A stretch of 10,108 nt of DNA, from assembly GCA_016181215.1 (NCBI GenBank), contig JACOZS010000029.1, forward strand, positions 1 to 10,108, read 5' to 3'. Below are positions 1,067 to 7,734 of the stretch, one piece after another. The position numbers were made by a program, and so were the translations under genes. This stretch comes from Candidatus Woesearchaeota archaeon. GTDB taxonomy: Archaea; Nanobdellota; Nanobdellia; SCGC-AAA011-G17; JACOZS01. Within the stretch, counting starts at the first letter, position 1. Every line of letters starts with the position of its first letter. The notes under the pieces are model-generated. The model worked only from the letters and a program-made list of their open reading frames with translations, was not told the origin of the DNA and searched no databases.

Positions 1067-1860
1067 AAGTAATAATAGACGCGCTGCTTGAAATAAAGAA
1101 GGCCTTTTCGTTAATAAAAATTTTTAATGTGTTGCTGGATACCTTTTTGATATTTTCTGCCATATTTTTAATTCTTTCGTTGATTATGGTTACTTGGATA
1201 TTTGCTCTGGTTCCTGCTGTCGTGTATTGTGCGCTGAAATTCCACAGGCTTAGCAGAAAAAATGAATTCAGGGAAGTGGAAAGAAGAGTTCCTGTGCTAA
1301 ACGAGCAATTAAGAACCGTTGCTGATAATATCGACAGGGAAAATCCAATTATAGAAAGCCTGCACAAAGAAGTCCTCGGGAAGATGAAGCAGGTTAGAGT
1401 CTCATCTTTTATAGATCAAAAAAGAATGTTTGCTAAAACGATTGCGCTTGCATTTGTCAGTTTCATTGCTGTGCTAGTTTCTTTTAATAATGTTGTGTTT
1501 TTAGATTTTAACGAGCTTGTGTTTGAAACAATAGACAAAGCTAAAGAGCTTACTGGTAAAGACAGAGACGATAAATTTGATGAATTTGAGGATATTTATG
1601 GGTACAGGCCAAGGGATATATATGGTGATGCTAGCGTGGCAGAACTTGGCACAGAGGAGCTTTTATTGAAGATCCAGCCTCTTGCATCAGAGATAGACAT
1701 AAGTGACGTGAAGGATGCTGAAAAACACGAGTTCGGAGGAGAGTTTCCGAAAGATATATATGCTACTTCTGATGCGTCTTATGGGGATGACATTCCAAAA
1801 GAACATCAAGAGGTCGTTAAAAGGTATTTTAGTGATATAACCAAGGGAGAAAGTTCATGA
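1063..1860 (+). CDS. membrane protein of the MoxR operon
   Basis: A 265-residue protein whose ATG overlaps the previous stop (ATGA) and whose own stop overlaps the moxR start the same way, so translation of the three genes is probably coupled. It has a hydrophobic hairpin at about 22-60 (LLDTFLIFSAIFLILSLIM, then WIFALVPAVVYCALKF), a helical linker with VPVLNEQLRTVADN, and another TM segment at about 127-150 (TIALAFVSFIAVLVSF). A soluble acidic C-terminal tail of about 110 residues ends in PKEHQEVVKRYFSDI. The LNEQLRTVADN and final 'PxxHxxVVxRYF' features recall the DUF4175-type membrane proteins that accompany MoxR/vWA genes. I call this resemblance only, not a firm family assignment. Its likely role is as a membrane partner of the MoxR ATPase. 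Confidence 0.75.
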   Translation: MKVIIDALLEIKKAFSLIKIFNVLLDTFLIFSAIFLILSLIMVTWIFALVPAVVYCALKFHRLSRKNEFREVERRVPVLNEQLRTVADNIDRENPIIESLHKEVLGKMKQVRVSSFIDQKRMFAKTIALAFVSFIAVLVSFNNVVFLDFNELVFETIDKAKELTGKDRDDKFDEFEDIYGYRPRDIYGDASVAELGTEELLLKIQPLASEIDISDVKDAEKHEFGGEFPKDIYATSDASYGDDIPKEHQEVVKRYFSDITKGESS

Positions 1861-2267
1861 ATTTAGATGAAGTAAAAAAAACTTTGGATAAGGTATTTAG
1901 TGAATGCGGCCGAGTTATCGTAGGGCAGGAAGAAATGCTAAAACATATCATGACTTCCGTTTTAACAGATTCGCATGCATTGATTGAAGGATATCCTGGG
2001 TTAGCCAAAACGTTGACCGTGAGCACCTTATCAAGATTAATGGATCTAAAGTTTTCCAGGATACAAAATACTCCAGATTTAATGCCTTCTGATATTTTAG
2101 GAACGTATATTCTTGAGGAGAGCAAGGGCAAGAGAGAATTTAAGTTCCAGCAGGGACCTATATTTGCCAATGTGATACTGGCTGATGAGCTTAACAGGGC
2201 TTCTCCTAAAACGCAGAGTGCTTATCTTGAATCCATGCAGGAAAGACAGGTAACTAAAGACAGGTAA
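1857..2267 (+). CDS. MoxR-family AAA+ ATPase, N-terminal fragment (frameshifted)
   Basis: This is the first part of a MoxR ATPase, a AAA+ chaperone that remodels or activates partner proteins, often vWA-domain proteins encoded beside it. In this fragment the Walker A motif GYPGLAKT is at residues 45-52 and the Walker B VILADE at 106-111, followed by the MoxR-typical LNRASPKTQSAYLESMQERQ. The frame then ends at a TAA at 2265-2267, just before sensor 1. The cause is an exact 14-bp tandem duplication at 2242-2269. Deleting one copy restores ERQVTLGNSTFKLDKPFLVL, a normal MoxR sequence. The start ATG overlaps the upstream stop by 4 nt. Without the duplication and the intein the gene would encode about 310 residues, the usual MoxR length. 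As it stands the fragment has the nucleotide-binding core but lacks sensor 1 and the helical lid, so it should not be functional alone. Confidence 0.9.
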   Translation: MNLDEVKKTLDKVFSECGRVIVGQEEMLKHIMTSVLTDSHALIEGYPGLAKTLTVSTLSRLMDLKFSRIQNTPDLMPSDILGTYILEESKGKREFKFQQGPIFANVILADELNRASPKTQSAYLESMQERQVTKDR

Positions 2268-2269
2268 CT
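2242..2269 (+). repeat. 14-bp exact tandem duplication that breaks moxR
   Basis: The 14-mer aaagacaggtaact occurs twice in direct succession, at 2242-2255 and 2256-2269. Fourteen is not a multiple of three, so two copies shift the frame and expose a TAA. One copy would give an uninterrupted, family-conforming MoxR. Confidence 0.95.
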
Positions 2270-4687
2270 CTTGGGAATTCAACATTTAAATTGGATAAGC
2301 CGTTTCTGGTGCTGGCTACCCAGAACCCAATTGAACAAGAAGGAAGTTTGGCTTTGGATCAACCCGTTTTTATAGATGGAGAGTTGAAGAATGGTTATGA
2401 GCTATTAAGGGAAATGAAGGATGTAGGGGTTGTTGAACAGAGTAAGAAGTGCCTGTATATGTTGCCTGATTCCTATACCTTGGCGCTTGGCGCTGATGGA
2501 AGATTACAAAAGAATAAATGTTTGCTTTATACTCTGCCATATGAAGGAGATCTAATTGCCGTTAAAACTAAACAGGGGCGTTGTGTAACTGTAAGTGGAA
2601 ATCATCCTTTCTTGGTAAATGAGAAGGGGAAGGTATCTTGGAAACGGGCTGAGGAACTGCAAGAAGGAGATTATTTAGTAAGTCCAGCCAAGATATCATC
2701 TAGTGTAGAGAAAACCGAATTAATTAACCATCATGAAGCCTTGAATCTGGTCTCTAAAAAATACAAGGTTGTTAGGTTTAAGGAAATGGTTGAATTACGC
2801 GATAAAACTTGTGATTTTGAAAAAGACAAATTAAAGTTATTGAATGGCGAGGATTTCACTAAATTGCGCATAGTGTCTTGGCTATCCATTAAGCGCCTTG
2901 CTAAAAAACTTGGGTTGAATAAGGCTGGTTATTGGCAGCTCGTTAGGTTTTTAAGAAGAAATACCAATAATGAATATATAAAGAATAAATTAGTTGATTA
3001 CTTTAGTAGAAATAAACCTCGGCTCGATGGTAAAGATTATGTTGAAAGTTTCTCTATAAATTCCATAAAGCCATTTAAGGTTGATGAAGATGTTGCTGCG
3101 TGGCTTGCTTTCTTGCAGTCAGATGGAACGGTACGGGATACTGTAATTGCAGCTTATCAAAAGAACTATCCGCAGGAACTTGCTAGATTTGTAAAAACAA
3201 CAATTAACAAACTTGGTATGAAAATAAGTTATACTAAAACTACCAAACGTGATGGTACTAGGGTTGTAATTCAATCTAAACCCCTGGTGGATTATTTAAA
3301 GTTTAGATTTGGTATAGAGCATAATAAAGTTCCTAGCTGGTTTATATCATTGCCTATTAAATTTGTGAGATCTTATCTTAGGACTTTCATATCGTTAGAA
3401 TCCCACTTTGATATTAAAACCAGGCGCATTACTTTTGTTCAAAAGAATTTTAATACGGTCAATACCCTGAGGTATATGCTTCTTAAAGACGGAATAAACA
3501 GTTGGCTAAAGAAGGATAGTGGTGGTATTTGGGGGTTTAGAATACAAGGGAGAGATTTAAACAGGTTTATTGGCAAGATTGGGTGGGTTGATGCGCGTAA
3601 AATTAAGAGATTCCGTGACGAGGTTCCAGAAAACTTTGCTATCGGTACTTCAAGCAGGGTTATTCCTTTACCTAAGGACATGATAGTAAAAGTGTGTAAG
3701 CTACTTGGACTAAACTCATTCCATGCCTATAAGAACAGAAAGAGATTTTTAGATATGGACTGGTATTTTGCATACAAGGCCTGTCAGCAAGGAAGAGAGG
3801 TTGTTAGCATAGATCTCTTTAAAAAGTTGGTAAGGGGATTCAGAAAAGAATTAAAAAAGCGCAGGGGGGTTAATTTTGCGGAATTGATGGAGAGAGATAT
3901 TCGGGAAGCTGCTGTTCTTATTGGAATACCAATAACCGAGGTTGCTGAAGCAATTAATACTTCTCATAATTCGGTTTGGGGTGTTTATCAAGGTAAAAAA
4001 CAAGCCAGCTTAGAGATGGTAAGTTTTCTTGAAGAGAGTTACACTAAAAAACTGGGAGAGGTTGAGAGGATAGTTGATTATTTAGATCAGTTAGCTTCTA
4101 GAGATGTTATTTATGATAAGATTGTTTCTTTGAGAATCCGGCCTTTTTCCGGAAAGGTTTATGGTCTAACTGTTCCTGGACTTCAAAATTATGTCGCGGG
4201 TTTTGGGGCTTGCGGAATAAATCATAATACTTTTCCATTACCTGAGGCACAGGCAGACAGGTTTCTTTTGAAAATTAGAGTTGAATATCCTACTTTTACT
4301 GAAGAGATGGAAATTGTTGACAGGTACGCTGAAACTTTGAAATCTGTTGATTTAAAGCCTGTTTTGAAGAAGGATATGTTAATGCAACTTCAGGGATTGG
4401 TCAGGCAAGTCCCTATTGCAAATGATGTGAAAAAATATGCTGTTGACTTAGTAACTAAAACCAGAAATAGGAGGGATTTGGTTGAGTACGGTGCTTCTCC
4501 AAGGGCGTCTATAGGTTTGATACTGGCTGCTAAAGCACATGCGTTGATTGAAGGAAGAAAATATGTCAGCAAGGAAGATATAAATCACATGGCCTTACCT
4601 ATATTAAGACACAGGATAATTTTAAGTTTTGAGGCTGAGAGAAATAATCTAAAAGAAGATGATGTGATTAAGGGGTTGTTGAAATAG
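2258..4687 (+). CDS. MoxR-family AAA+ ATPase, C-terminal fragment with intein
   Basis: This is the reading frame that continues moxR after the duplication. It is open from 2258 (RQVTLGNSTFKLDKPFLVL) and has no convincing start of its own; a TTG at 2291 lacks a clear Shine-Dalgarno. It contains sensor 1 (ATQNPIEQEG), then a 628-residue intein, then the rest of MoxR from TFPLPEAQADRFLLKI to the end. The C-terminal extein carries the MoxR sensor-2/lid region (YGASPRASIGLILAAKAHAL and LPILRHRIILSFEAE). After splicing it would rejoin as EQEG-TFPLPEAQ, matching the normal family sequence. The gene ends convergently with the reverse transcriptase gene and overlaps it by 20 nt. In a typical moxR cluster a DUF58 gene would follow, but none is present here. 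Confidence 0.9.
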   Translation, partial: RQVTLGNSTFKLDKPFLVLATQNPIEQEGSLALDQPVFIDGELKNGYELLREMKDVGVVEQSKKCLYMLPDSYTLALGADGRLQKNKCLLYTLPYEGDLIAVKTKQGRCVTVSGNHPFLVNEKGKVSWKRAEELQEGDYLVSPAKISSSVEKTELINHHEALNLVSKKYKVVRFKEMVELRDKTCDFEKDKLKLLNGEDFTKLRIVSWLSIKRLAKKLGLNKAGYWQLVRFLRRNTNNEYIKNKLVDYFSRNKPRLDGKDYVESFSINSIKPFKVDEDVAAWLAFLQSDGTVRDTVIAAYQKNYPQELARFVKTTINKLGMKISYTKTTKRDGTRVVIQSKPLVDYLKFRFGIEHNKVPSWFISLPIKFVRSYLRTFISLESHFDIKTRRITFVQKNFNTVNTLRYMLLKDGINSWLKKDSGGIWGFRIQGRDLNRFIGKIGWVDARKIKRFRDEVPENFAIGTSSRVIPLPKDMIVKVCKLLGLNSFHAYKNRKRFLDMDWYFAYKACQQGREVVSIDLFKKLVRGFRKELKKRRGVNFAELMERDIREAAVLIGIPITEVAEAINTSHNSVWGVYQGKKQASLEMVSFLEESYTKKLGEVERIVDYLDQLASRDVIYDKIVSLRIRPFSGKVYGLTVPGLQNYVAGFGACGINHNTFPLPEAQADRFLLKIRVEYPTFTEEMEIVDRYAETLKSVDLKPVLKKDMLMQLQGLVRQVPIANDVKKYAVDLVTKTRNRRDLVEYGASPRASIGLILAAKAHALIEGRKYVSKEDINHMALPILRHRIILSFEAERNNLKEDDVIKGLLK
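2345..4228 (+). other. intein (628 aa) in MoxR, with LAGLIDADG-type endonuclease domain
   Basis: This is a protein-splicing element that excises itself from the MoxR precursor. It begins with Ser1 in block A (SLALDQPVFIDG) and has a block B GNHPFLV at residues 85-91 with the conserved His87. It ends with block G (VYGLTVPGLQNYVAGF ... GINHN, residues 605-628), whose terminal His-Asn precedes a +1 Thr. All residues expected for class 1 splicing with Ser nucleophiles are therefore present. A first LAGLIDADG-like helix WLAFLQSDGT is at 253-262. The second, around FVRSYLRTFISLESHF (about 340-355), lacks the usual Asp-Gly, so the homing endonuclease may be inactive. Helix-turn-helix-like segments occur near residues 178-215 (SIKRLAKKLGLNKAGYWQLV) and about 518-555 (ITEVAEAINTSHNSVWGVY). 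The length is at the large end for inteins. Boundaries are inferred from block motifs and the rejoined extein. Confidence 0.92.
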
Positions 4688-5741
4688 CGTTATTAATTTT
4701 GCTCAGTATTATTCTTTTTAGTTTGTGTGTATTTGCCCACCTTATGTAACCGAACCAGCCTTCTATGCTTGAACTAATATCTTCTTTGGTAATTGAACCG
4801 TTTTTGTACATTTCTATTTTACGCATTAGGTTCAATTCAAACTTTTTAAGATTACTTTTTCTCAGGAGTTTATGGTGAAAGAAGATATTGTATCCAAGAA
4901 GTAATATTCCGTTTCTTAAGGGGGTTATTTTAGTTTTATCCCTGTGCAATTCAAGCTTAAGTTTATCTTTTAGCAAGTTGCTTATTTCTTGTTTCCATAG
5001 TTCCAATAGATTCTTATTTGGATGTAATATGATAAAATCATCTACGTATCTTATGTAGTATTTTGCTTTTAGTTTGTGTTTCACGAAATAGTCTAATTCG
5101 TTCAAGTAGACATTTGCGAAGAATTGAGAAGTCATGTTTCCTAAAGGCATGCCTTTACCTTGGGTTTCAGTTTTGAAATTGTTTAGTATCTGTTGAGTTA
5201 ACCTGATTATGTCTTCATCTTTGATTTTTTTCCTTAGTATGTTTATCAAAATTTCATGATCTACTGTATCAAAGTAATGTTTTATATCGGCTTTTAGAGC
5301 GTAGCCTGTTATTGAGTTGGCATTATATGAATTTTTTACTAGCTGTCCGTTTTTTGATGCCTTTCTTTTAAATTTATCAAATCTAAAAACGGCTTTATGC
5401 GTTCCTTTATTTATTTGATTTGCGTGAGAATCGTAGATAAACATTTTTTCAAAAATGGGCCCCATTATGTTGATTAGAGCATGGTGCACTATCCTGTCTC
5501 TGAAGTGAGAAGCATGGATTACTCTTGATTTTGGATCCTTTATCGTAAATCTTTCTAGGGACCTTGGATAATACTTTTGTGATACTAGTTCTTGTTTTAA
5601 TTTATTTAGGTTTTGTTTCAAATTTTTTTCAAATCCTAAAACGTATGGTTTTTTAGATTTCCTCTTCTTGGCTTTCTTAAATGCAGATTCAAGGTTTTCT
5701 ATGGAACATAGAGTTTTGTATAAATTTTTGTAGGTTTTCAT
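4668..5741 (-). CDS. DGR-type reverse transcriptase
   Basis: A 357-residue reverse transcriptase, within the usual DGR RT length. The start is set at the ATG of MKTYKNLYKTLCS (5741), because the longer open frame to 5906 only reads through the TR. The motifs run in order: SRVIHASHFRDRIVHHAL at about 72-89, FIYDSHANQINKGTHKA at 101-117, ALKADIKHYFDTVDH at 148-162 (catalytic Asp152), GMPLGNMTSQ at 197-206, YVDD at 232-235 (catalytic Asp234/Asp235), LLGYNIFF at 281-288, and a C-terminal thumb-like SSIEGWFGYIRWANTHK. The LGxxxSQ form of motif 4 is the recognised hallmark of DGR RTs, where group II intron RTs have QGxxxSP. There is no X/maturase or endonuclease domain. The TR ends 20 nt upstream of the start, and no strong Shine-Dalgarno is visible. 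Its role is to reverse-transcribe the TR RNA with adenine-specific infidelity. The C-terminus overlaps the moxR end by 20 nt. Confidence 0.93.
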   Translation of the reverse strand: MKTYKNLYKTLCSIENLESAFKKAKKRKSKKPYVLGFEKNLKQNLNKLKQELVSQKYYPRSLERFTIKDPKSRVIHASHFRDRIVHHALINIMGPIFEKMFIYDSHANQINKGTHKAVFRFDKFKRKASKNGQLVKNSYNANSITGYALKADIKHYFDTVDHEILINILRKKIKDEDIIRLTQQILNNFKTETQGKGMPLGNMTSQFFANVYLNELDYFVKHKLKAKYYIRYVDDFIILHPNKNLLELWKQEISNLLKDKLKLELHRDKTKITPLRNGILLLGYNIFFHHKLLRKSNLKKFELNLMRKIEMYKNGSITKEDISSSIEGWFGYIRWANTHKLKRIILSKINNAISTTP

Positions 5742-5760
5742 TGTAATGCCATGACCCAGA

Positions 5761-5868
5761 GTATTGCAACCGCAGCAATCTCGTCTTGTTATAAAAGATT
5801 TCGAGTTCTGCGGATTCCTGTTGCAGTTGAGCTTGGCCCTACCAGCGCAGGTGCTGAACCTCGCGACA
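5761..5868 (-). repeat. DGR template repeat (TR)
   Basis: A 108-nt segment homologous to the VR at 6172-6257, in the same orientation and 20 nt before the RT start. Apart from a 22-nt extra segment (5778-5799) it aligns to the VR without gaps over 86 columns. Of 14 mismatches, 12 are at TR coding-strand adenines (12 of 21 adenines changed, against 2 of 65 other bases). In the target frame the TR has A-rich codons (AGG, AGC, ACC, AAG, AAC, AGG, AAT, AAC), the usual DGR design. Both ends are GC-rich: tgtcgcg on the upstream side and gctgcggttgca on the downstream side, the latter the likely initiation-of-mutagenic-homology segment. Confidence 0.93.
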
Positions 5869-6042
5869 ACCCGGACAGATGTAGCAAATCCATTAAGTTG
5901 CACCATAACTTTAGGTTTCGCTCTAAACTTTCCAAGGGTTTGGTCATTGTTACTTGCTATTGTTATTGTATTTTATGGCGTTTAGACTCAATCGTCCACG
6001 CACTATGGATCTGCGTGTACACTGGGTTTGTTAACTTTCATT

Positions 6043-6067
6043 GAGGTTCCAACAGGTTTTGGAACTC
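6043..6067 (-). repeat. imperfect hairpin between VR and TR
   Basis: gaggttccaa (6043-6052) can pair with ttggaactc (6059-6067) around a 6-nt loop, with a core of 7 consecutive pairs plus a bulge or wobble. It could be a structural element of the TR RNA or the end of the target mRNA. No U tract follows. Confidence 0.45.
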
Positions 6068-6075
6068 TTAAGTTA

Positions 6076-6087
6076 ACGCCATGGCGT
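6076..6087. repeat. 12-bp perfect palindrome
   Basis: acgccatggcgt is perfectly self-complementary and lies 9 nt from the hairpin at 6043-6067, in the spacer of the DGR. Its function is unknown. Confidence 0.45.
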
Positions 6088-6148
6088 ATTGGAAGACTTA
6101 AACCTGATTTAAAGGGTTTACTATTTTGCCGGATTTTCTGATGAAATT

Positions 6149-6526
6149 TTATGATGGGCTGCGCGCGACGCGTACTGCAACCGCAGCATCCGAGTCCTGC
6201 GGATACCAGTCGCAGCTGAGCATGGCCCCCCCAGCGCTGGCGCCGAACCCCGCGACAGTCTCAACTTCCTCTTGTGGTCTGGAATTAACGCGCCATAAAA
6301 AGGGGTCTACTCCTGTTAACCATGACCAGACATTCTGGATTTCTGCTGTATTATCTGTACCAAGAAGGGCTTTGTATGGAGCTGGAGTTTTGGTGTTTTT
6401 TACAAATTCATCTGGACCGACCATAGCTTCTAAGACTTCATGCTGATCTGGCAATCCGTAGTTATGTATGACTTTATCTGGTCCTGAAGGTGTATGTATT
6501 ACTCTTGTAAGGGTAGTTAGCCACTG
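6149..6526 (-). CDS. DGR variable (target) protein, C-terminal fragment with VR
   Basis: This is the second half of the DGR target gene, in a frame shifted -1 relative to the first half. It is open from 6526 (QWLTTLTRVIHTPSGPDKVI) and ends at 6149, about 125 residues. A TTG at 6454 is the first start-like codon, but no ribosome site supports it, so this is a continuation and not a separate gene. The C-terminus (VAGFGASAGGAMLSC, then DWYPQDSDAAVAVRVAR) is encoded by the VR plus about 20 nt of downstream sequence. Its pattern of Gly/Ser-rich turns with a final VRVAR strand resembles the C-type-lectin/FGE-like variable domains of DGR proteins. About eleven codons differ from the TR by adenine changes, for example AAG to ATG, AAC to GAC, AGG to TGG and AAT to TAT. 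The predicted role is a displayed ligand-binding protein. No signal peptide or anchor is visible. Confidence 0.82.
   Translation of the reverse strand, partial: QWLTTLTRVIHTPSGPDKVIHNYGLPDQHEVLEAMVGPDEFVKNTKTPAPYKALLGTDNTAEIQNVWSWLTGVDPFLWRVNSRPQEEVETVAGFGASAGGAMLSCDWYPQDSDAAVAVRVARSPS
6172..6257 (-). repeat. DGR variable repeat (VR)
   Basis: An 86-nt segment at the 3' end of the target gene, matching the TR. Coding-strand changes are A-to-G, A-to-T and one each of other types, and nearly all are non-synonymous. It ends 21-23 nt before the target stop codon. It is markedly GC-rich compared with the surrounding A/T-rich DNA and contains a run of seven C (seven G on the coding strand). Confidence 0.93.
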
Positions 6527-6825
6527 TTAACCATATTATCGCTAATGAACCTTCTGGCTTCTTCTGTTGTATGGTCTGTTCTTCTTTCATATAGTGCTTT
6601 AAATAAAGCATGATATAATGGGAAGTCTCCTACGTGGAATTCTCCTTTTGGTATTGCTTTTCTTGAGTCTTCTGCCCATCGGTCTTGTGTTTTACTGGAG
6701 CCGTTGTTTAGTAATACTTTTCCTAAATCGACTACGTAAATTCCGTTTCTGTAGTTTACTCCTGGGATTCTCCAGAAATCTGTTTTGTCTTCTATGTTTG
6801 ATGTTTTTGTTGGGTTGGATGCCAT
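6517..6825 (-). CDS. DGR variable (target) protein, N-terminal fragment
   Basis: A 102-codon frame starting MASNPTKTSNIEDKTDFWRI and ending in a TAA at 6517-6519. The start is supported by GAGGT (6839-6835 on the - strand) about 9 nt upstream and a TATA-like box beyond it. The content is a soluble domain with FWRIPGVNYRNGIYVVDLGK, DRWAEDSRKAIPKGEFHVGD, and a helical LYHALFKALYERRTDHTTEE stretch ending RRFISDNMVN. The next frame continues naturally (QWLTTLTRVI), so one base lost near 6525-6531 would explain the break. The intact protein would be about 226 residues, and the C-terminal VR supplies the variable face. I see no TM helix or secretion signal in this half. The fold of the N-terminal half is not recognised. 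Confidence 0.8.
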   Translation of the reverse strand: MASNPTKTSNIEDKTDFWRIPGVNYRNGIYVVDLGKVLLNNGSSKTQDRWAEDSRKAIPKGEFHVGDFPLYHALFKALYERRTDHTTEEARRFISDNMVNSG

Positions 6826-7031: not shown

Positions 7032-7271
7032 ATGCAAGAGAGGCTGTTTGATATGCTGGTCAACCAGGACGAGATAACCTGGCAGGCCATTATCTATGAC
7101 CTGGTTAAAAGCGAGCAGATGGATCCCTGGGACATAGACATTAATATTCTAACCCATAGATATCTAGAAACTGTAAGGGGGTTAGAAGAACATAATTTTT
7201 TTATCTCTGGAAAGGTTATTCTGGCTGCTGCAATATTGCTTAAAATTAAATTCAGACAAGTTACTCAATGA
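7032..7271 (+). CDS. scpA: ScpA (segregation and condensation protein A), N-terminal fragment
   Basis: The N-terminal part of ScpA, the kleisin that bridges the SMC heads in the chromosome-condensation complex. The start is the ATG of MQERLFDMLVNQDEITWQAI, chosen for the TATA box about 27 nt upstream. A TTG at 7017 is in frame but upstream of the predicted transcript start. Diagnostic sequence includes LVKSEQMDPWDIDINILTH (the ScpA 'mDpwDIDI' signature) and GKVILAAAILLKIK. At 7251 one extra T in the aaattcag context throws the frame off, and it ends in RQVTQ at 7271. Skipping that base gives KSDKLLNEYLANLDSMMFQ, as the family requires. The break is one base in a poly-A/T context, which is compatible with a sequencing error. 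ScpA is normally important for chromosome segregation, so real loss would be surprising. Confidence 0.85.
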   Translation: MQERLFDMLVNQDEITWQAIIYDLVKSEQMDPWDIDINILTHRYLETVRGLEEHNFFISGKVILAAAILLKIKFRQVTQ

Positions 7272-7734
7272 ATACCTGGCAAATTTAGATTCAATGATGT
7301 TCCAGCATGACCAGGATCTATTAGAGGATGATCAACCAATAAAATACGGAGATCAGATAATACCTAATCTGCTCATAAAAACGCCACAGGCGAGAAAGAG
7401 AAAAATAAATTTAAACGATCTTATGAATGCCCTGAATTTAGCATTGAAGGTTGAGCATAAGAGATTCTTAAGAAAGGAAAAAGAAAGAATTCTAAGGCCT
7501 GTTCTGCTGCCTATCAGGAGTATTGACATAACAAAAATTATAAAAGAGGTTTATGAAAAGATAGTCGGCCTTTTCAAGGACAGACAGGAATTGACATTTA
7601 CAGAACTAGTAGGAAGCGACAGAAAAGAAGATAAAATATTAACTTTCATTCCTCTGCTTCATTTGTGCAGCAAGCATAAAGTTGACTTAGAGCAGGAAGA
7701 GCATTTTGGGGAGATAAAGATAAAGTTGATGTGA
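7252..7734 (+). CDS. scpA: ScpA, C-terminal fragment
   Basis: The continuation of ScpA in the +1 frame, from SDKLLNEYLANLDSMMFQHD to the stop at 7734, about 160 residues. It contains the basic linker (TPQARKRKINLNDLMNALN), the central helical region, and the C-terminal winged-helix part (TFTELVGSDRKEDKILTFI, then PLLHLCSKHKVDLEQEEHF and GEIKIKL) that contacts an SMC head in the family. An ATG at 7294 is the first conventional start in this frame, but it lacks a ribosome site and would omit conserved sequence. The whole gene with the frame repaired encodes about 233 residues, normal for an archaeal ScpA. No smc or scpB lies in the window. The next gene begins 1 nt after the stop. Confidence 0.85.
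   Translation, partial: SDKLLNEYLANLDSMMFQHDQDLLEDDQPIKYGDQIIPNLLIKTPQARKRKINLNDLMNALNLALKVEHKRFLRKEKERILRPVLLPIRSIDITKIIKEVYEKIVGLFKDRQELTFTELVGSDRKEDKILTFIPLLHLCSKHKVDLEQEEHFGEIKIKLM

What the first reader, a model, noticed from the sequence alone, without database searches (positions are those of the whole stretch)
4668..6825. Diversity-generating retroelement in a probable DPANN archaeon
The - strand order target/VR - TR - RT, the LGNMTSQ motif 4 and YVDD of the RT, and the TR/VR mismatch pattern (12 of 21 TR adenines changed, against 2 of 65 other bases) together identify a DGR by direct sequence evidence. The target protein is a fresh candidate for a displayed variable ligand-binder of a host-dependent archaeon.
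Basis: partly seen in the sequence, partly recalled or inferred. Interest (0 to 1): 0.9.

Follow-up and report, generated by a model that had tools for sequence, protein, structure and literature searches.

The report
Gene-diversifying retroelement with spliced template
A tiny archaeon carries a genetic element that rewrites one of its own genes from a template, and the template appears to hold a short intron that the cell's transfer-RNA splicing machinery removes before the template is copied back into DNA.

Summary
The diversity-generating retroelement (DGR) is real: DGR-type RT, TR, and a VR at the 3' end of a target whose relatives model as a C-type-lectin fold. 12 of 21 TR adenines differ against 2 of 65 other bases. 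The genome holds three such RTs, and this TR also matches a VR on another contig. DGRs of this kind in nanoarchaea are published.

The block has the geometry of an archaeal bulge-helix-bulge (BHB) intron, and the VRs join where the splicing endonuclease should cut. Among 253 non-redundant RT loci, TR-only blocks of 9 nt or more occur in 22 of 109 archaeal DGRs with a VR and in 0 of 66 others. Of 27 blocks 21 fit the canonical BHB; shuffles give 0.15. The helices co-vary. EndA and RtcB genes are present in 16 of 16 genomes checked.

Best reading: the template RNA is spliced before reverse transcription, and VRs record it. No RNA evidence exists here. My searches of an open-access library found no prior report.

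The parts
4668..5741 (-). DGR reverse transcriptase gene (start ATG at 5739-5741; the longer ORF to 5906 runs through the TR)
   Evidence: PF00078 6.5e-19, PHROG 1423 1e-118, best solved structure 8ub7
5761..5777 (-). TR, 3' exon (17 nt)
   Evidence: TR/VR alignment
5778..5799 (-). 22-nt block present in TR, absent from both VRs: predicted BHB intron
5777..5805 (-). BHB core: central helix CTCG (5802-5805) with CGAG (5780-5783); 5' bulge AAA (5799-5801); 3' bulge ATT (5777-5779)
   Evidence: canonical geometry H=4, inner helix 4 bp; fold z -3.72 for 5761-5825 and -2.14 for 5765-5812
5800..5868 (-). TR, 5' exon (69 nt)
   Evidence: TR/VR alignment
5876..6053 (-). Rfam RT-16 RNA, upstream of the TR
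   Evidence: RF03019, 69.1 bits, E 2.1e-9
6162..6172 (-). short GC hairpin (CGCG-TCG-CGCG) just after the VR, inside the end of the target gene
   Evidence: read by eye; no test made
6172..6257 (-). VR, at the 3' end of the target gene, without the 22-nt block
   Evidence: 12 of 21 A and 2 of 65 other bases differ from TR
6149..6454 (-). target gene, C-terminal piece
   Evidence: ORF; relatives in L052 and L048
6517..6825 (-). target gene, N-terminal piece (frame broken between the two pieces)
   Evidence: ORF; relatives in L048 and L052

Best explanation
A DGR whose template RNA carries an archaeal BHB intron. A transcript through the RT-16 element and the TR folds into a bulge-helix-bulge around the 22-nt block. 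The tRNA-splicing endonuclease (EndA) cuts after the second nucleotide of each bulge, RtcB joins the exons, and the join restores an AAT codon that the intron splits. The error-prone RT copies the spliced TR, changing adenines, and the cDNA replaces the VR at the end of the target gene, in cis here and in trans on contig C33. Shown: the DGR parts, the adenine pattern, the block missing from both VRs, the BHB geometry with matching junctions, co-variation, and the presence of EndA and RtcB genes. Inferred: transcription, that these enzymes act on this RNA, and that splicing comes before copying.
For: The block is missing from both VRs of the window's TR. TR-only blocks of 9 nt or more occur in 22 of 109 archaeal DGRs with a VR and 0 of 66 others; the opposite (block only in VR) occurs once, L317. 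21 of 27 unique blocks have, at a placement allowed by the TR/VR alignment, a full 4-bp central helix, 3-nt bulges cut after nucleotide 2 and an inner helix of 2 bp or more; shuffles expect 0.15; slid positions in the same TRs give 0 of 1674. Pairing is kept in 145 of 147 cells with 29 double changes, shuffle maximum 14. L079 has three such blocks and L086 two, at different sites with different helices. TRs with several VRs: both or all VRs lack the same block in L041 (2), L044 (2), L052 (3), L058 (2). 18 of 21 canonical blocks join as AA|Y. EndA and RtcB in 16 of 16 genomes checked. L042: one VR lacks the block, another holds a copy of it with adenine changes inside, as expected if spliced and unspliced RNA can both be copied. 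rtcB genes of four of these genomes are interrupted by short BHB-like inserts whose removal restores the conserved reading.
Against: No RNA data. The blocks are related, so the P value (4e-47) overstates; in the RT tree the trait needs 8 changes and well-supported branches force only 3. Six of 27 blocks are not canonical: L089-1, L275-1 and L278 are near misses, L057, L101 and L275-2 do not fit. The second VR of L247 is best placed one base off the canonical junction. 16 of 22 blocks with a full helix are multiples of three, so for these the reading frame does not demand removal. In the local fold of the window the 3' bulge is partly closed by pairing with the AA before the helix.
Confidence: 0.88

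Rival explanations
1. Template jump: the RNA is not spliced; the reverse transcriptase skips a stable hairpin in the TR during cDNA synthesis and so deletes it.
For: The block folds as a hairpin, and hairpins can make reverse transcriptases jump (recalled). A few junctions are off the canonical place (L247 second VR).
Against: The junctions are not at the foot of the inner hairpin but two nucleotides into each bulge, in 21 of 27 blocks. VRs of one TR share the junction in L041, L044, L052 and L058. A 4-bp helix with two 3-nt bulges has no reason to be conserved with double changes under this reading. No such block in 66 bacterial and IMG/VR DGRs, though these are also less related.
Confidence: 0.07
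2. Dead templates: hairpin elements inserted into TRs after the VRs had been written; such TRs are no longer used.
For: The window contig has broken frames in moxR, target and scpA, and the window's TR has G at four places where VR2 has A, so TR and VR2 have drifted apart.
Against: The pairing is kept across diverged TRs with double changes; the junction fits the splicing rule; L042 has a VR that contains an adenine-mutated copy of the block, so a TR with the block has been copied.
Confidence: 0.04
3. Assembly or sequencing artefact of this contig.
For: Draft genome, 66% complete, 85 contigs, with several frame breaks on this contig.
Against: The same kind of block recurs in independent assemblies. 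The pattern CTCGAAATYTN{2,25}ARACGAGA is in 13 of 103 genomes of the order (15 hits; 0 with the pattern reversed), and by my comparison 12 of the 15 hits lie close upstream of a DGR RT.
Confidence: 0.01

Closest known systems
DGRs of DUSEL4 Nanoarchaeota (Paul et al. 2015, PMC4372165; passages seen)
   Same: Several DGRs in one small archaeal genome, targets without recognisable family, C-terminal VR; in many relatives the TR ends GGAATA and the VR GGGGTA, like the TGGAAT/TGGGGT reported there; hairpin within the target gene.
   Different: The passages that I saw report no TR-only block or intron; the word 'intron' there refers to group II introns in the passages shown. In the window the ends read GCAATAC and GCAGTAC. 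I did not examine those genomes.
Bordetella phage BPP-1 DGR (prototype; recalled, RT structure 8ub7 found)
   Same: RT family, adenine mutagenesis, TR to VR transfer.
   Different: No natural intron in TR. That a self-splicing intron placed in TR by experimenters was lost from VR (Guo et al. 2008) is recalled; the paper was not held.
Archaeal BHB introns of tRNA, rRNA and cbf5 mRNA (PMC2738675, PMC7714728; passages seen)
   Same: 4-nt helix between two 3-nt bulges, cut between second and third bulge residue.
   Different: Here in the template RNA of a retroelement, 15-42 nt long, up to three per template.
Rfam RT-16 RNA (RF03019)
   Same: Matches just upstream of the TR in the window and in 12 of 14 further DGR loci searched (not L089, L049).
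   Different: The window match ends at 5876, before the TR, so it does not cover the intron.
Nanoarchaeota DGR target of C-type-lectin fold, 5ioo
   Different: 10% sequence identity over the aligned part; the window's own target was not modelled.

Membership tests
Diversity-generating retroelement | RT of the DGR type | tested here: met
   Best solved structure 8ub7 (DGR identity recalled); PHROG 1423; groups with archaeal RTs that have TR/VR pairs
Diversity-generating retroelement | TR and VR nearly identical except at TR adenines | tested here: met
   12 of 21 A against 2 of 65 others; second VR 10 of 21 A against 4 of 65 others
Diversity-generating retroelement | VR at the end of a target gene of C-type-lectin fold | tested here: met
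   VR at the 3' end of the target ORF; fold tested on relative P0001, 96% identical to the L052 target; window target itself broken and not modelled
Diversity-generating retroelement | Accessory gene such as avd | tested here: inconclusive
   No separate minus-strand ORF of 60 aa or more between target and RT; no search with an Avd model was made
Diversity-generating retroelement | Active mutagenic retrohoming | not testable with these tools
   No population or RNA data
Archaeal BHB intron | 4-bp central helix between two 3-nt bulges | tested here: met
   Window: CTCG/CGAG, bulges AAA and ATT; 21 of 27 blocks canonical
Archaeal BHB intron | Exon junction two nucleotides into each bulge | tested here: met
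   Both VRs of the window's TR; 21 of 27 blocks; exceptions told
Archaeal BHB intron | Genome encodes splicing endonuclease and ligase | tested here: met
   PF01974 and PF01139 in the window's genome and 15 others; the rtcB match of the window's genome is in two pieces
Archaeal BHB intron | Spliced RNA observed | not testable with these tools
   Only DNA is available; the VR stands in for the spliced product

The most novel reading that the evidence does not exclude
Splicing is a working part of the retroelement and not a passenger. The intron usually ends 15-19 nt before the TR end and splits a mutable AAY codon, so only spliced template writes that codon as a unit. It would keep template and target apart (a TR overwritten by its own cDNA would lose the intron) and tie diversification to the cell's tRNA-splicing activity. 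Splicing would also be alternative: the L042 TR has written one VR without the block and one with it, which gives length variants besides sequence variants.
Probability: 0.35. Interest if true: 0.95.

Novelty: new variant of a known kind. Interest (0 to 1): 0.86.

Why it matters
If right, this is a natural intron in the template of a mutagenic retroelement, and the VRs are a DNA record that the template RNA was spliced before it was copied. It would make the tRNA-splicing endonuclease and ligase host factors of archaeal DGRs, add a class of substrate for them, and allow RNA splicing in uncultured DPANN archaea to be read from genome sequence alone. It also warns that DGR finders which expect TR and VR of equal length may miss or misread such elements.

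Tried and rejected
Assembly artefact as the cause of the block: rejected because the block recurs in other genomes. BHB introns as the cause of the frame breaks in the window's moxR, target and scpA: I looked at the target and scpA breaks in three frames and at the moxR sequence by eye and saw no such geometry; no formal test was made. moxR shows a short tandem duplication. I cannot tell error from real lesion. BHB introns as the cause of split RT genes in relatives: of six looked at, five break at a run of G. Viral origin: as a single query the window RT finds two IMG/VR contigs at 35% identity; with the alignment as query the best are 58% and 50%. The pattern scan of IMG/VR gave 44 contigs, which I did not examine. 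PF00078 is common, so alone did not show three DGRs: L005 has its own TR/VR pair; for C39 (L004) no VR was found beside a run of N, only an RT-16 match.

Rows dropped before the counts: 26 exact duplicates, loci without a VR over the score limit, and 9 loci with a repeat that failed the mismatch limits (L119, L143, L147, L154, L155, L156, L163, L195, L212). Blocks that do not fit the BHB (L057, L101, L275-2) are kept in the counts.

Papers: search listings only; passages of PMC4372165, PMC8144416, PMC3240598, PMC2738675, PMC7714728, PMC8867640 and PMC6642488; no whole paper. 'No prior report' rests (0 papers hold both 'bulge-helix-bulge' and 'diversity-generating retroelement') and on the listings, all in an open-access library without most subscription journals.

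Full report
1. What was claimed and what is there. This holds. The RT (4668-5741) hits RVT_1 (E 6.5e-19), PHROG 1423 (E 1e-118) and among solved structures best 8ub7 (E 2.3e-41; its identity as the Bordetella phage DGR RT is recalled). An RNA of Rfam family RT-16 lies just upstream of the TR (5876-6053).

2. The genome. The window is contig C14 of a 450-kb, 85-contig genome rated 66% complete, with three RVT_1 matches, on C14, C39 and C78. C78 (L005) has its own TR/VR pair. For C39 (L004) no VR was found, but an RT-16 match lies beside its RT. The window's TR also matches a second VR, on C33: 10 of 21 A changed, 0 of 24 C, 4 of 25 G (all to A), 0 of 16 T. The four G-to-A differences cannot come from adenine mutagenesis of the present TR, so the TR has changed since, or another template wrote that VR. 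RT matches occur in 41 of 103 genomes of the order at E 1e-30 and in 100 of 378 genomes drawn from the class at E 1e-50. Named duplicates of same-order genomes are labelled Woesearchaeota, Nanoarchaeota or archaeon.

3. The block. The TR is 108 nt, the VR 86. The difference is one block, 5778-5799, missing from both VRs. In the window it reads CTCG AA|A TCT...AGA CGAG AT|T, which has the form of the archaeal bulge-helix-bulge: a 4-nt helix between two 3-nt bulges (passage of PMC7714728), cut between the second and third bulge residue (passage of PMC2738675). The VR junction falls on the predicted cuts.

4. The survey. 279 loci went into the scan; 26 exact duplicates were dropped, leaving 253. 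A VR with DGR-like differences was found for 109 of 162 archaeal, 62 of 75 IMG/VR and 4 of 16 bacterial loci. TR-only blocks of 9 nt or more occur in 22 of the 109 archaeal DGRs and in none of the 66 others; a VR-only block occurs once (L317). Over the archaeal pairs 1948 of 3618 TR adenines differ against 106 of 8198 other bases (these pairs were selected partly for that contrast). The limits (score 34; at least 20% and 5 of the A; at most 12% of others) were set by me after the first cases. Two of the IMG/VR contigs, L158 and L159, group with archaeal RTs.

5. The BHB test. The 33 gaps collapse to 27 unique blocks in 22 TRs. For each I listed the junction placements that need the fewest non-adenine changes (1 to 9 per block) and asked whether one has a full 4-bp helix in register with 3-nt bulges and an inner helix of at least 2 bp. 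21 of 27 do, in 18 TRs; shuffles of exon and intron letters with the same number of placements expect 0.15 (P 4e-47 if independent). Slid positions in the same TRs give 0 of 1674. The blocks are related, so that P is too small; but L079 (three blocks), L086 (two) and one of L089 have other helices at other sites, each with a shuffle chance of 0.002 to 0.025. Near misses: L089-1, L275-1, L278. No fit: L057, L101, L275-2. The second VR of L247 is best placed one base off. Outside this count, L255 has the motif and a VR that by eye joins at the predicted site with two non-adenine mismatches, the second VR of L251 likewise, and L050 has the motif but no VR was found. Canonical BHB-like placements also turn up in TR-side stretches of some DGRs without a gap (one search lists 13 loci besides L255), so geometry alone is not proof; the match of geometry and junction is.

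6. Pairing. In the 21 canonical blocks seven pair columns hold 145 standard pairs of 147, with 29 double changes; 2000 shuffles reach at most 121 pairs and 14 double changes. Relatedness can inflate such counts. The window's stretch 5761-5825 folds better than all 200 shuffles (z -3.72); the shorter 5765-5812 gives z -2.14 with 5 of 200 as good. In that fold the AA before the helix pairs with TT of the 3' bulge.

7. Junction and code. In 18 of 21 canonical blocks the exons join as AA|Y; of 17 placed in a frame, 13 put this in frame as an AAY codon. AAY is the usual variable codon of DGR templates (recalled). Of 22 blocks with a full helix, 16 are multiples of three and 6 are not. The window's is 22 nt: left in, it would shift the frame of the end of the target.

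8. Copies with the block. The L042 TR has one VR without the block (at -486) and one with a copy of it, 3 nt shorter and with adenine changes inside (at -3014); one frame of that copy is open. So a template with the block has been copied too.

9. Machinery. PF01974 (EndA) and PF01139 (RtcB) match in 16 of 16 genomes with TR blocks (the genomes of L057, L101, L255 and L050 were not in this set). In several of them rtcB is itself in pieces. For L052 and L329 a BHB placement (28 and 32 nt) restores the conserved reading GG.G.DINCG; for L330 and L331 listed placements (31 and 32 nt) restore HWGYG by eye. Several BHB placements are possible in such stretches, so the protein reading carries the weight. 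PMC7714728 counts one mRNA as known carrier of the motif before its own work (passage).

10. Evolution. In a tree of 111 RTs the archaeal rows form one group with two IMG/VR rows (SH-aLRT 99). The 17 rows with blocks (near misses included) need 8 changes, against 16.0 in shuffles; well-supported branches force at least 3. The trait is partly inherited and partly gained or lost. L046, in the same 11-row group as the window (support 92), has a TR without the block.

12. Novelty. Several DGRs per nanoarchaeal genome are published (PMC4372165, passages). No paper in the library holds both 'bulge-helix-bulge' and 'diversity-generating retroelement', and the listings showed nothing on introns in natural TRs. 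Two papers that I wanted were not held. So: a known kind of element with a template that seems to be spliced, which I believe is new.

13. Limits. All is inferred from DNA, mostly of metagenome-assembled genomes. The population test was not possible. Single bases of this contig should not be trusted, given its broken frames; the block itself recurs elsewhere.

Noticed in passing
L052 about 4620-4650, L329, L330, L331 (rtcB genes of relatives): rtcB, the gene of the splicing ligase, is interrupted by inserts of 28-32 nt with BHB geometry whose removal restores conserved motifs, at two different sites: probable mRNA introns.
   Followed up: partly
L262, L249, L263, L265, L264, L326 and seven others, just before RT motif 4: A run of 7 or more G lies before motif 4 in 13 of 159 archaeal DGR RTs; the frame is open in 7 and broken in 6. 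It could be phase variation, frameshifting or homopolymer error.
   Followed up: partly
window 1857-4687 (+): A moxR-type ATPase gene carries an intein with a LAGLIDADG domain; its frame is broken near 2250-2290, where a short tandem duplication lies.
   Followed up: no
window 7032-7734 (+): scpA is in two ORFs with the frame broken near 7260-7290.
   Followed up: no
G000:C33:3031-3116 (L040): Second VR of the window's TR, at the end of a paralogous target gene without an RT on that contig; four TR G positions read A there.
   Followed up: yes
L005 8015-8347 (-): In the second DGR of this genome the VR is followed by about 50 more residues of a helix-like tail in the target ORF, so the VR is not at the end.
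   Followed up: no
G038:C1 and G063:C16: RtcB matches are split inside one long open frame (975 and 981 aa), which looks like an intein near the site where relatives have a short insert.
   Followed up: no
L046 (TR upstream of RT): TR without the block whose sequence reads like a joined form (TTCGAATGC): possible loss of the intron by copying back into TR.
   Followed up: no
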